Shown here: positions 34,124-41,735 of the stretch, piece after piece
Layout: each line of letters opens with the position of its first letter
Numbering within the stretch: position 1 is the first letter of the stretch
IMG/VR virus record: IMGVR_UViG_3300012931_000031
Span: 1 to 46,154 of that record
Source: a virus
Length of the DNA: 46,154 nucleotides
Direction: 5' to 3' (one strand)
Translations under genes and position numbers: made by a program
Notes under the pieces: model-generated
Seen by the model: only the letters and a program-made list of their open reading frames with translations
Told to the model about the DNA's origin: nothing
The model's database searches: none

Positions 34124-34152
34124 TTGACAGAAATTCCGGCAAATGTTATATT
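34124..34152 (+). promoter_or_regulatory. Sigma70-type promoter upstream of the inserted element
   Basis: TTGACA (34124-34129), 17-bp spacer, TATATT (34147-34152), followed by GGAGG (34158-34162). It originally served the holin-like gene and now points into the element. The predicted start near 34159 falls in the Shine-Dalgarno, so the exact start needs mapping. Confidence 0.75.
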
Positions 34153-34170
34153 TGCTTGGAGGTAATAATA

Positions 34171-34193
34171 AATGGGATCGGAATGTTCACCTT
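34171..34193 (+). repeat. Target duplication and left inverted repeat
   Basis: AATGGGAT (34171-34178) is the left copy of the 8-bp target duplication; CGGAATGTTCACCTT (34179-34193) is the left terminal inverted repeat, exact reverse complement of the right one. Confidence 0.92.
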
Positions 34194-34195
34194 AA

Positions 34196-34546
34196 TACAA
34201 CGGCAAAGACGCAAGAGATTTCGTTTTGAAAAACATTGACTTGTCCGGCTCGTCCTTGTACACTGACGATTACAGAGTGTATTCCAAGATGGGGAAGCTT
34301 GCGGAGCATGAAAGCGTCAATCACAGCGCAAAGCAATACGTCAACGGGAATGTGCATACAAACGGAATCGAAGGATATTGGGCGCTCGTAAAGCGGGCAT
34401 GGTATGGACAACATCATCACTACGCTAAAAAATACACGCCTCTTTACGTTGCAGAGGCAAGTTTCAAATTCAACAACAGGAAAATTGATTCTTCGGAAAT
34501 TTTTGTAAAAGTTATGAAAGAGGCAATGACATGTACACTTTCATAG
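34196..34546 (+). pseudogene. IS1595-type (ISXO2-like) transposase, C-terminal remnant
   Basis: In-frame remnant of about 116 codons that begins right after the left inverted repeat with Y-N-G-K-D-A-R. Conserved C-terminal signatures of the family are intact: Y-T-D-D-Y-R-V-Y, V-N-H-S, H-T-N-G-I-E-G-Y-W, K-R-A-W-Y-G and F-K-F-N-N-R. The N-terminal zinc-binding part and the first catalytic Asp are missing, so it is inactive. TTG 34226 is the first plausible start codon. Overlaps the methyltransferase start by 16 nt. Confidence 0.85.
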
Positions 34547-35475
34547 ATTTGTTTTCGGGAATCGGCGGCTTTAGATGCGCCCTTGAAAAAAGAGGACTGG
34601 AGTGCGTCTTTTCGTCCGACATAGACGATAAGGCAAACGAAGCGTACAAGGCGAATTTCGGAGACAGTCCGCATGGCGATATTACGGAAATACCCGAAAA
34701 GAAAATACCGAAGCACGATATTTTATGCGCGGGTTTTCCCTGTCAAAGCTTCAGCATTTCTGGAGACCGCAAAGGACTTGACGACAACAGGGGACGGCTT
34801 TTTTACGACATAGTGCGTATTGCTCAATATCATCAGCCATATATCATGCTTTTGGAAAACGTGAAAAACATCTTGACGGTAGACGGCGAGAAAGTCATAA
34901 AAACGATTGAAACAAAACTTGACGAAATAGGATATACGGTTCAAAAGCACGTTCTCAATTCCTCGTTTTACGGAATACCTCAAAGCAGGGAACGGGTTTA
35001 TTTTGTTTGTCTTCGCAAAGACATAAAATCAGAGAACGTGAAACTTTCATACCATCCGCCGAAACAACAGAGAAAAGACATCTATCTGGAAAACATATTG
35101 GAAGCGGAAGTAGACAAGGCCTTGTTTGTCGATAGAAAAGACATGAAGATTGAACGCCAAGCGGAAAAGCACGAATTGAGACCGATACGAATCGGCCACG
35201 TCAATAAGGGCGGACAAGGAGAGCGGATATACAGCATAAACGGACACGCCATAACGCTGTCTGCATACGGCGGCGGCGTTGGGGCGAGAACGGGGCTTTA
35301 TCTTGTTGACGACAGAGTGCGCAAACTTTCGATTAACGAATGCAAGACGCTTATGGGATTTCCCGTTACATGGAAAGTAAGCGACGGCATTCAAGGGTAT
35401 CAACAATTAGGGAATGCAGTTATCCCCATCATGGTCGGGAACGTATATGACGCAATCAAAGTTCAGCAAGCCTAA
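34531..35475 (+). CDS. DNA cytosine-5 methyltransferase (element cargo)
   Basis: 314 residues with all key motifs: I F-S-G-I-G-G (SAM binding), IV G-F-P-C-Q-S-F-S (catalytic Cys), VI E-N-V-K-N, VIII Q-S-R-E-R-V-Y-F-V, and X with Q-L-G-N-A-V. Length and order are those of type II M.HhaI/Dcm-like enzymes. Methylates cytosine in an unknown short recognition sequence and could protect phage DNA against restriction. GC-richer than the neighbouring phage genes, in line with transfer. Downstream partners are broken, so it now acts as an orphan enzyme. Confidence 0.92.
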   Translation: MYTFIDLFSGIGGFRCALEKRGLECVFSSDIDDKANEAYKANFGDSPHGDITEIPEKKIPKHDILCAGFPCQSFSISGDRKGLDDNRGRLFYDIVRIAQYHQPYIMLLENVKNILTVDGEKVIKTIETKLDEIGYTVQKHVLNSSFYGIPQSRERVYFVCLRKDIKSENVKLSYHPPKQQRKDIYLENILEAEVDKALFVDRKDMKIERQAEKHELRPIRIGHVNKGGQGERIYSINGHAITLSAYGGGVGARTGLYLVDDRVRKLSINECKTLMGFPVTWKVSDGIQGYQQLGNAVIPIMVGNVYDAIKVQQA

Positions 35476-35593
35476 CAGAAACGCATACATAGGCAGAAAC
35501 GTCGAAATATTATTCAAAAACAGCATTGGCGACAATCCAAACGTCATATTGAAATTGCAAAAAGCGTTTTCAATGAGGTCAAAAGAGCCTTGA
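35447..35593 (+). pseudogene. N-terminal fragment, possible restriction endonuclease
   Basis: 48 residues starting inside the 3' end of the methyltransferase gene, as coupled restriction genes often do. Contains R-N-A-Y-I-G-R-N-V-E-I-L-F-K, which looks like the start of a larger protein, then ends early where a different frame takes over. A restriction endonuclease is inferred only from its place after a type II methyltransferase. Confidence 0.45.
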
Positions 35594-35673
35594 AAAAAGA
35601 GGGCCGGAAAGTGATTATCGTCTGGGAATGCCAAACGACAAAAGAAACATGGATTAAGAAATTAAAGCCCTAA
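35527..35673 (+). pseudogene. Vsr-like mismatch endonuclease, C-terminal fragment
   Basis: Frame open from about 35527 to the TAA at 35671-35673, with no start codon of its own. The end reads A-L-K-K-E-G-R-K-V-I-I-V-W-E-C, matching the family's terminal L-x3-G-W-x-V-x-x-x-W-E-C signature (here G-R instead of G-W). Vsr nicks T-G mismatches that arise from 5-methylcytosine and often accompanies cytosine methyltransferases. Catalytic N-terminal part absent. Confidence 0.6.
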
Positions 35674-35695
35674 AGGTGAACATTCCGAATGGGAT
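35673..35695 (+). repeat. Right inverted repeat and target duplication
   Basis: AAGGTGAACATTCCG (35673-35687) is the right terminal inverted repeat, and AATGGGAT (35688-35695) is the second copy of the target duplication. The ATG inside it is the start codon of the next gene. Confidence 0.92.
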
Positions 35696-36057
35696 TAGGA
35701 AAACTAAAAGACAATATCGTGATGTCTATCGTAATGAGAACAATTAAAAACAAATTAAAGGAGTCTGGCATGTTATGGAAAATCAAGTCATGGTTTAGTA
35801 ACAAGAAAACCTATTTCGTGGCAGTTGGTATCTTTTTAGAACAACTGGTAGAATTAGTTAATACCTATTTGACAACTGGCCAGTTTGACGAAAAAGCGTT
35901 AGTGGGTATGTTAGCCGGTCTTGGTATCGGAACATTACGGGCGGCAATAGCTAAGGCTATGATTATGTTAGCCCAAATGGTTGCAGAAGCCCAACCCCCC
36001 AAAGTGCCTATTTCTGGACAAGATATAAGTAAATCAGTAAAAAAAGAAGGAGAGTAA
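35689..36057 (+). CDS. Holin-like small membrane protein
   Basis: 122 residues from ATG 35689, or 95 from ATG 35770, which has AAAGGAG six bases upstream. One hydrophobic segment near N-K-K-T-Y-F-V-A-V-G-I-F-L and a Gly/Ala/Leu-rich one near L-V-G-M-L-A-G-L-G-I suggest two membrane helices. With a cell-wall hydrolase two genes on, a holin is likely. The element lies between this gene and its original promoter and GGAGG. The right inverted repeat supplies an AGGTG that may act as a replacement Shine-Dalgarno. The two in-frame starts recall dual-start holins. Confidence 0.6.
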   Translation: MGLGKLKDNIVMSIVMRTIKNKLKESGMLWKIKSWFSNKKTYFVAVGIFLEQLVELVNTYLTTGQFDEKALVGMLAGLGIGTLRAAIAKAMIMLAQMVAEAQPPKVPISGQDISKSVKKEGE

Positions 36058-41132: not shown

Positions 41133-41735
41133 CTATCTGTTTGCCTCGAAAAATGCCTTAGCAAATCCGGGCGGTGTTATTGATCTTAATTCTGCTATCT
41201 TTTTAAAGTCTCTATTCATTTTGGCTGGGTTGAATAATTCTTTTACCGTTGTATTGGCCGGTGGTTTATCGTAAATGATGGAATCCTTTGGCGTTTCAAA
41301 CATCCCCCAAAGGCAAGTCTTCTTGGTATAGTTATCGCCGAATTGGTAAGGTTGAAATACAAAAGCTGGTTTACCTAAAAACCATTTGAGCAATCCGTTG
41401 GGATTTTCTAACGCCCAAAATTTTAACGGGGAACTTCTCGAATATGGTTTTTTTATTCTATACTGGGATTCCCAAATTATCCCGAGACAGGCATATACTA
41501 TTTCCATTCCCTCTTTTAAATCTCTTGGCCTACCATTAGTTTTAGCGATGCTGAAGTGTGTACAGGGCGGAGCGGCCAATATCCCATAGACATTATCTGG
41601 CGGTTGATATAGTCGCACATCGTTATCGGGCAATGTTACCAATCGCACGTCATAACCGGCTTCTTTATAAGGTCGAGACCATGCACCGGTTCCACCGCAG
41701 AGATCGAGAATTATCTTATCAGAATTACCCATCAT
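41133..41735 (-). CDS. Phage-type DNA cytosine methyltransferase-like protein
   Basis: 200 residues. Motif I I-L-D-L-C-G-G-T-G-A-W; motif IV A-A-P-P-C-T-H-F-S with the catalytic Cys; motif VI W-A-L-E-N-P-N-G-L, where E-N-P replaces E-N-V; and a C-terminal S-I-T-P-P-G-F-A-K-A-F. Shorter than classic enzymes, with little room for a target-recognition domain. Such compact members are frequent in phages and may modify many cytosines or use another one-carbon chemistry. It belongs to the phage's own operon, unlike the enzyme at 34531-35475. Confidence 0.75.
   Translation of the reverse strand: MMGNSDKIILDLCGGTGAWSRPYKEAGYDVRLVTLPDNDVRLYQPPDNVYGILAAPPCTHFSIAKTNGRPRDLKEGMEIVYACLGIIWESQYRIKKPYSRSSPLKFWALENPNGLLKWFLGKPAFVFQPYQFGDNYTKKTCLWGMFETPKDSIIYDKPPANTTVKELFNPAKMNRDFKKIAELRSITPPGFAKAFFEANR

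What the first reader, a model, noticed from the sequence alone, without database searches (positions are those of the whole stretch)
34171..35695. IS1595-type element delivered a DNA methyltransferase to the phage
Seen in sequence: perfect 15-bp inverted repeats (CGGAATGTTCACCTT), exact 8-bp duplication AATGGGAT, a C-terminal transposase remnant with family motifs, and an intact m5C methyltransferase. It shows in one locus how a phage can gain an anti-restriction gene by transposition. The left repeat is joined directly to internal transposase codons, so the element had already become non-autonomous, or decayed in place.
Basis: partly seen in the sequence, partly recalled or inferred. Interest (0 to 1): 0.85.

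Follow-up and report, generated by a model that had tools for sequence, protein, structure and literature searches.

The report
Phage methyltransferase left by R-M transposon
A small jumping element that once carried a complete restriction-modification system (a DNA-cutting enzyme plus its protective methylase) landed in this phage, and deletions have stripped it down to the protective methylase, which shows in one place how a virus can acquire a lone, probably anti-restriction, methyltransferase.

Summary
An exact 8-bp duplication (AATGGGAT) and perfect 15-bp inverted ends enclose a C-terminal IS1595 transposase remnant and an intact m5C methyltransferase; no other such pair exists in the window. 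Between methylase and right end lies the N-terminus of a restriction-endonuclease gene (the only match in the window, E 2e-9) and possibly the tail of a vsr gene. Relatives show the intact form. Phage record L074 holds a complete element with the same ends, full transposase, methylase and endonuclease, and its own 8-bp duplication. An Omnitrophota MAG (L054) has transposase and methylase (75% identical) joined by the same overlap. The methylase is HhaI-like (E 2e-90 to M.HhaI) and the endonuclease family is related to R.HinP1I (E 1e-5), both GCGC enzymes. So the cargo was a type II R-M system, and two deletions left a solitary methylase behind a strong phage promoter. Anti-restriction is inferred, not shown. 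Related IS1595 elements repeatedly carry other methylase or R-M genes. Passenger-carrying IS1595 elements are already known. No uninterrupted relative of this phage was found.

The parts
34124..34152 (+). phage sigma-70-type promoter TTGACA-N17-TATATT with TG before the -10, upstream of the insertion; now reads into the insert
   Evidence: 11 of 12 matches, tied best of the 10 kb scanned; consensus match only
34158..34162 (+). phage ribosome-binding site GGAGG of the interrupted gene; now serves a short leader ORF MGSECSP* (34172-34195)
   Evidence: sequence
34171..34178 (.). left copy of target-site duplication AATGGGAT (contains the start codon of the interrupted gene)
34179..34193 (.). left terminal inverted repeat, truncated to 15 bp by an internal deletion (ancestral 21 bp or more)
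34196..34546 (+). C-terminal ~116 codons of IS1595-family transposase; N-terminal ~177 codons (zinc ribbon, first part of the DDE domain) and the element's own promoter deleted
   Evidence: PF12762 E 7.7e-21; 65-68% identity to L054 transposase
34531..35475 (+). intact HhaI-like m5C DNA methyltransferase, 314 aa; start overlaps transposase stop by 16 nt as in L054
35474..35569 (+). N-terminal remnant (about 32 codons) of a HinP1I-related restriction endonuclease gene
   Evidence: E 2.3e-9 in six-frame search, only hit
35569..35673 (+). C-terminal remnant (34 codons) of a last gene, possibly vsr; stop codon overlaps the right inverted repeat
   Evidence: weak: best six-frame Vsr hit in window E 0.09; rank 3 of 1000 against shuffles; M-R-Vsr gene order in L175
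35667..35687 (.). right terminal inverted repeat, 21 bp as in relatives (15 bp of it pair with the left end)
35688..35695 (.). right copy of target-site duplication AATGGGAT; restores the start codon of the downstream phage gene
35689..36057 (+). phage gene whose start codon is the insertion site (122 aa, hydrophobic segments, holin-like by eye only); an in-frame ATG at 35770 has its own AAAGGAG
   Evidence: no convincing Pfam match and no PHROG match

Best explanation
An IS1595-family transporter IS (tIS) carried a complete HhaI/HinP1I-like (GCGC) type II R-M cassette, ordered transposase - methylase - endonuclease, probably followed by vsr. It transposed into the start codon of a phage gene and made an 8-bp duplication. 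Two internal deletions, before or after insertion, removed the transposase N-half with the element's promoter, and the body of the endonuclease (and vsr). An intact methylase remains, now placed directly behind a strong phage promoter. The solitary methylase most likely methylates GCGC in the phage genome and protects it in hosts carrying GCGC-cutting systems. Shown: ends, duplication, gene remnants, intact relatives. Inferred: order of events, expression, specificity, protective function.
For: Perfect duplication and ends, unique in the window. L054 (Omnitrophota MAG): left end CGGAATGTTCACTTTTAGGGC, full transposase, methylase 75% identical, same overlapping stop/start, and the same endonuclease N-terminus (NRNAIIGRNVEVLFKNS) followed by decay. 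L074 (phage record with terminase, portal, protease, tape measure): complete 2680-bp element, identical ends of at least 21 bp, transposase, methylase and endonuclease, duplication TTGAGTTA. Six-frame search of the window with the endonuclease profile has one significant hit, the open stretch from 35411, E 2.3e-9. Methylase aligns end to end with M.HhaI including the recognition domain (KGGQGERIYS..G.AITLSAYGGG), E 2.3e-90. Endonuclease profile finds R.HinP1I as the only significant PDB match, E 1.4e-5, and PF11463 at 3e-4 for L174, below its curated cutoff. Window and L054 methylases are sisters, 96/92. Promoter at 34124-34152.
Against: No related phage with an empty site was found, so the insertion is read from the duplication alone. 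The vsr remnant is not significant. Expression and activity are unknown. GCGC is only mildly rare in the phage (59 seen, 78 expected), so there is no sign of strong GCGC restriction pressure on it. The structure prediction of the endonuclease was too poor to use. Synonymous sites are saturated against L054, so selection on the methylase after insertion cannot be tested.
Confidence: 0.8

Rival explanations
1. The element always carried a methylase only; the flanking scraps are chance, and no R-M cassette was involved.
For: Phages often carry solitary methylases, and Oliveira et al. [quoted passage not shown]
Against: The endonuclease scrap scores E 2.3e-9, is unique in the window, and sits exactly where the endonuclease gene lies in L074, L072 and Borreliella lp28-5.
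Confidence: 0.04
2. A decayed insertion whose methylase is a passive passenger, caught before loss, with no benefit to the phage.
For: Perfect ends and duplication suggest a recent insertion; the remnants are still in open frames; selection on the methylase after insertion cannot be tested.
Against: Only the methylase of the three or four genes is whole, and it sits behind a near-consensus phage promoter. Another viral record (L170) shows the same kind of loss with its methylase kept.
Confidence: 0.35
3. The element entered the phage already deleted (non-autonomous) and was mobilised in trans by a host copy, rather than decaying in place. (A sub-question of the best explanation, not exclusive of it.)
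For: Both outermost 15-bp ends are intact and identical; L170 shows a similar shortened form in another virus record.
Against: No second copy of the deleted form was found: the exact 15-mer search gave single-copy matches in other viral contigs, of which only L015 was recognised as a relative, and it has a different deletion.
Confidence: 0.4
4. Assembly chimera of a bacterial fragment and a phage.
For: The source is a virus record from a public collection, probably metagenomic.
Against: A chimera does not make an exact 8-bp duplication next to perfect inverted ends in a single contig.
Confidence: 0.02

Closest known systems
IS1595-family transporter ISs (tISCpe8, MTnSag1/tISSag10, ISNha5)
   Same: IS1595 transposase with terminal inverted repeats and passenger genes not needed for transposition (PMC5704250; PMC11891212)
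   Different: Those papers name lincomycin resistance (tISCpe8) and a regulator (ISNha5) as cargo; here the cargo is a type II R-M cassette, and the copy is deleted and lies in a phage
HhaI / HinP1I type II R-M systems (GCGC)
   Same: Methylase matches M.HhaI along its length; the endonuclease family is related to R.HinP1I
   Different: Endonuclease reduced to an N-terminal scrap; borne by an IS
R-M systems as mobile units with target duplications (Furuta and Kobayashi, as reviewed in PMC3874152)
   Same: R-M units bounded by inverted repeats and short duplications
   Different: Here the mobilising transposase is identified and encoded in the same unit
Solitary methyltransferases of phages (PMC4176335)
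   Same: A lone phage methylase, thought to act as an antidote to host restriction
   Different: Origin from a complete R-M system is visible here, against that survey's general trend
IS220 (IS1380 family) tIS with a methyltransferase (PMC11891212)
   Same: IS with a methyltransferase passenger
   Different: Different transposase family; methyltransferase type not examined here

Membership tests
IS1595 family insertion sequence / tIS | IS1595-type (ISXO2-like) transposase | tested here: met
   PF12762 E 7.7e-21 for the remnant; NF033547 IS1595 E 2.6e-49 for the full-length L054 relative
IS1595 family insertion sequence / tIS | 8-bp target-site duplication | tested here: met
   AATGGGAT, 8/8; also exact 8-bp duplications in L074, L067, L063, L059, L068
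IS1595 family insertion sequence / tIS | terminal inverted repeats shared with relatives | tested here: met
   CGGAATGTTCACYTTTAGGGC in window right end, L054, L015, L074
IS1595 family insertion sequence / tIS | complete transposase (autonomous) | tested here: not met
   About 60% of the transposase is deleted; this is a remnant of, not an active, IS1595 element
HhaI-type m5C methyltransferase (GCGC) | m5C motifs and HhaI-like target recognition domain | tested here: met
   GFPCQ, ENV and the KGGQGERIYS / AITLSAYGGG recognition region align with M.HhaI, E 2.3e-90
HhaI-type m5C methyltransferase (GCGC) | methylates GCGC | not testable with these tools
   inferred from the recognition domain only
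Type II R-M system | cognate restriction endonuclease present | tested here: not met
   Only the first ~32 codons remain in the window; intact in relatives L074 and L072
vsr repair gene | significant match to Vsr | tested here: inconclusive
   No Pfam hit; best six-frame Vsr profile hit in the window, E 0.09

The most novel reading that the evidence does not exclude
One clade of IS1595 elements is a standing vehicle for R-M and DNA-methylase genes that shuttles them between bacteria and phages. Phages repeatedly keep the methylase while deletions remove the transposase N-half and the nuclease, which would be a general route by which phages gain solitary methylases.
Probability: 0.35. Interest if true: 0.72.

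Novelty: new variant of a known kind. Interest (0 to 1): 0.52.

Why it matters
Where phage solitary methylases come from is disputed: a survey of 2261 genomes concluded that they rarely arise by decay of complete R-M systems (PMC4176335). This locus is a concrete case of such decay, with the vehicle, the lost endonuclease and the intact relatives all visible. It also shows that some IS1595 elements move whole defence cassettes, so a mobile element can supply a phage with the antidote to the very restriction system it spreads. The predicted specificity (GCGC) makes it directly testable.

Tried and rejected
Empty-site search: capsid protein and interrupted gene against viral contigs, and DNA and proteins against annotated phages, gave no close relative. 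Exact 15-mer ends in viral contigs gave 50 single matches, mostly chance. Vsr identity of the right-hand scrap was tested with Pfam, PDB and shuffles and stays undecided. Structure prediction of the endonuclease from two sequences failed (pLDDT 42) and was not used for a fold search. dN/dS against L054 is uninformative (synonymous sites saturated). TIR-like matches in 384 genomes of L054's phylum gave only L054 itself as a clear case. Motif avoidance: the phage strongly avoids CTAG, CGCG and GATC but GCGC only mildly. The searches of the held paper library turned up no report of R-M cargo in IS1595 elements; the defining 2009 IS1595 paper is not held, so this absence is weak.

Full report
Observation. 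The stated features are all there. Window 34171-34178 and 35688-35695 are the same 8 bases, AATGGGAT, and 34179-34193 / 35673-35687 are perfect inverted repeats of CGGAATGTTCACCTT. A scan of the whole window for inverted repeats flanked by duplicated 8-mers finds this pair and no other. The window is a virus record with an SU10-type major capsid protein, a terminase large subunit and a DnaB-type helicase.

What lies inside. The left end is joined directly to internal codons of an IS1595-family transposase: 34196-34546 aligns with residues ~178-290 of the full-length relative in L054, and matches PF12762 positions 76-153. The methylase at 34531-35475 is full length. Its start lies within the last codons of the transposase (16-nt overlap), exactly as in L054. 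Downstream of the methylase, 35474-35569 encodes NRNAYIGRNVEILFKNSIGDNPNVILKLQKAF, which matches the start of the protein encoded next to the related methylase in Borreliella burgdorferi N40 lp28-5, in L072 and in L074. In a six-frame search of the whole window with a profile of that family it is the only significant hit, E 2.3e-9. From 35569 the frame shifts into ...LKKEGRKVIIVWECQTTKETWIKKLKP*, whose stop codon overlaps the right inverted repeat. In L074 the stop codon of the last gene falls at the same place in the end sequence. This second scrap resembles the end of Vsr, and an Omnitrophota locus (L175) has the order methylase, endonuclease, vsr, but the match is not significant.

Intact relatives. 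L054 (Omnitrophota MAG) has the left end CGGAATGTTCACTTTTAGGGC, a complete transposase, a methylase 75% identical to the window's and a decayed endonuclease start; its right end was not found. L074 (IMG/VR 3300012932_000093), a phage record with terminase, portal, protease and tape-measure genes, holds an intact copy: 2680 bp, identical ends of at least 21 bp, transposase, methylase (64% identical), endonuclease, and duplication TTGAGTTA. L015/L226, another phage contig, holds the left end and the first 134 residues of a transposase 79% identical to L054's. The methylases of the window and L054 are sisters in a maximum-likelihood tree (96/92). So the methylase travelled with the element.

Specificity. 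The methylase aligns end to end with M.HhaI, including the recognition domain. A profile of the endonuclease family finds R.HinP1I as the only significant solved structure, E 1.4e-5; two family members also hit PF11463, below its curated cutoff. HhaI and HinP1I both act on GCGC (established knowledge). GCGC for the window's methylase is therefore a strong inference, not a result.

How it most likely works. In intact elements a promoter lies just inside the left end (for example TTGACC-17-TATAAT in L074) and would drive transposase, methylase and endonuclease. In the window that promoter is deleted, but the insertion landed 19 bases after a near-consensus phage promoter and beside its ribosome-binding site (34124-34152; 34158-34162), so the methylase is probably transcribed as part of a phage operon. 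The duplication includes the start codon of the interrupted phage gene, so that gene keeps an ATG, and it also has an in-frame ATG with its own Shine-Dalgarno at 35770. The phage thus may lose little from the insertion and keep a methylase without the nuclease. Protection from GCGC-cutting hosts is the likely benefit; it is untested.

Wider pattern. Relatives of this transposase often have a DNA methylase or R-M gene as the next gene: N4/N6 methylases in L056, L063, L067, L153, L170 and L215 (and L221 by resemblance); methylase fused to an HsdR-type N-terminus in L059, L060 and L061; M+R in L074. L063, L067, L059 and L074 have both ends and exact 8-bp duplications. Other copies carry no cargo (L058), a protease-like protein (L068) or other genes. 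The loci were drawn by similarity to this one transposase, several from the same genomes, so no rate should be read from this. In L170, another virus record, the same kind of loss is seen: end joined to transposase codon ~170, C-terminal half kept, methylase intact, though without a duplication.

What is known. IS1595 elements with passenger genes are established (tISCpe8, MTnSag1, ISNha5), and R-M genes have been reported on insertion sequences and transposons in general and as mobile units with inverted repeats and duplications. My searches of the held library turned up no report of R-M cargo in IS1595 elements, but the founding paper (Siguier et al. 2009) is not held. [quoted passage not shown] Verdict: real, well supported, a new variant of a known kind.

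Noticed in passing
L170 128-2280 (IMGVR 3300045116_000428): Second virus-record IS1595 element with the same loss pattern: end joined to transposase codon ~170, C-half kept, intact 568-aa DNA methylase; no target duplication.
   Followed up: partly
L059 3148-7869, L060, L061: Poribacteria IS1595 elements carrying large fused HsdR-N / N6-methylase proteins (type I or IIG-like R-M) directly after the transposase; L059 has exact 8-bp duplication AAATTAAA.
   Followed up: partly
L068 3167-6207 and L218 367-3582 (L218 in transposase orientation): IS1595 elements with other cargo: a trypsin-like protease-like protein and a GIY-YIG-like repeat protein (both named by eye), each with exact 8-bp duplications.
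   Followed up: no
L226 15540-16030 (L015): Phage contig with left end plus first 134 transposase codons ending at the first catalytic region, bordered by TAAAAAAT on both sides but with no right inverted repeat.
   Followed up: partly
window, whole: Strong avoidance of CTAG (1 of 75 expected), CGCG (15 of 80) and GATC (73 of 194), with GCGC only mildly low (59 of 78).
   Followed up: no
window 41133-41735, - strand: A second, unrelated small phage DNA methyltransferase (phrog_757, E 1.5e-34) outside the insertion.
   Followed up: no
window 35689-36057: Possible double start: long form from the duplicated ATG, short form from ATG 35770 with AAAGGAG; the insertion separates the long form from its original ribosome-binding site.
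   Followed up: no
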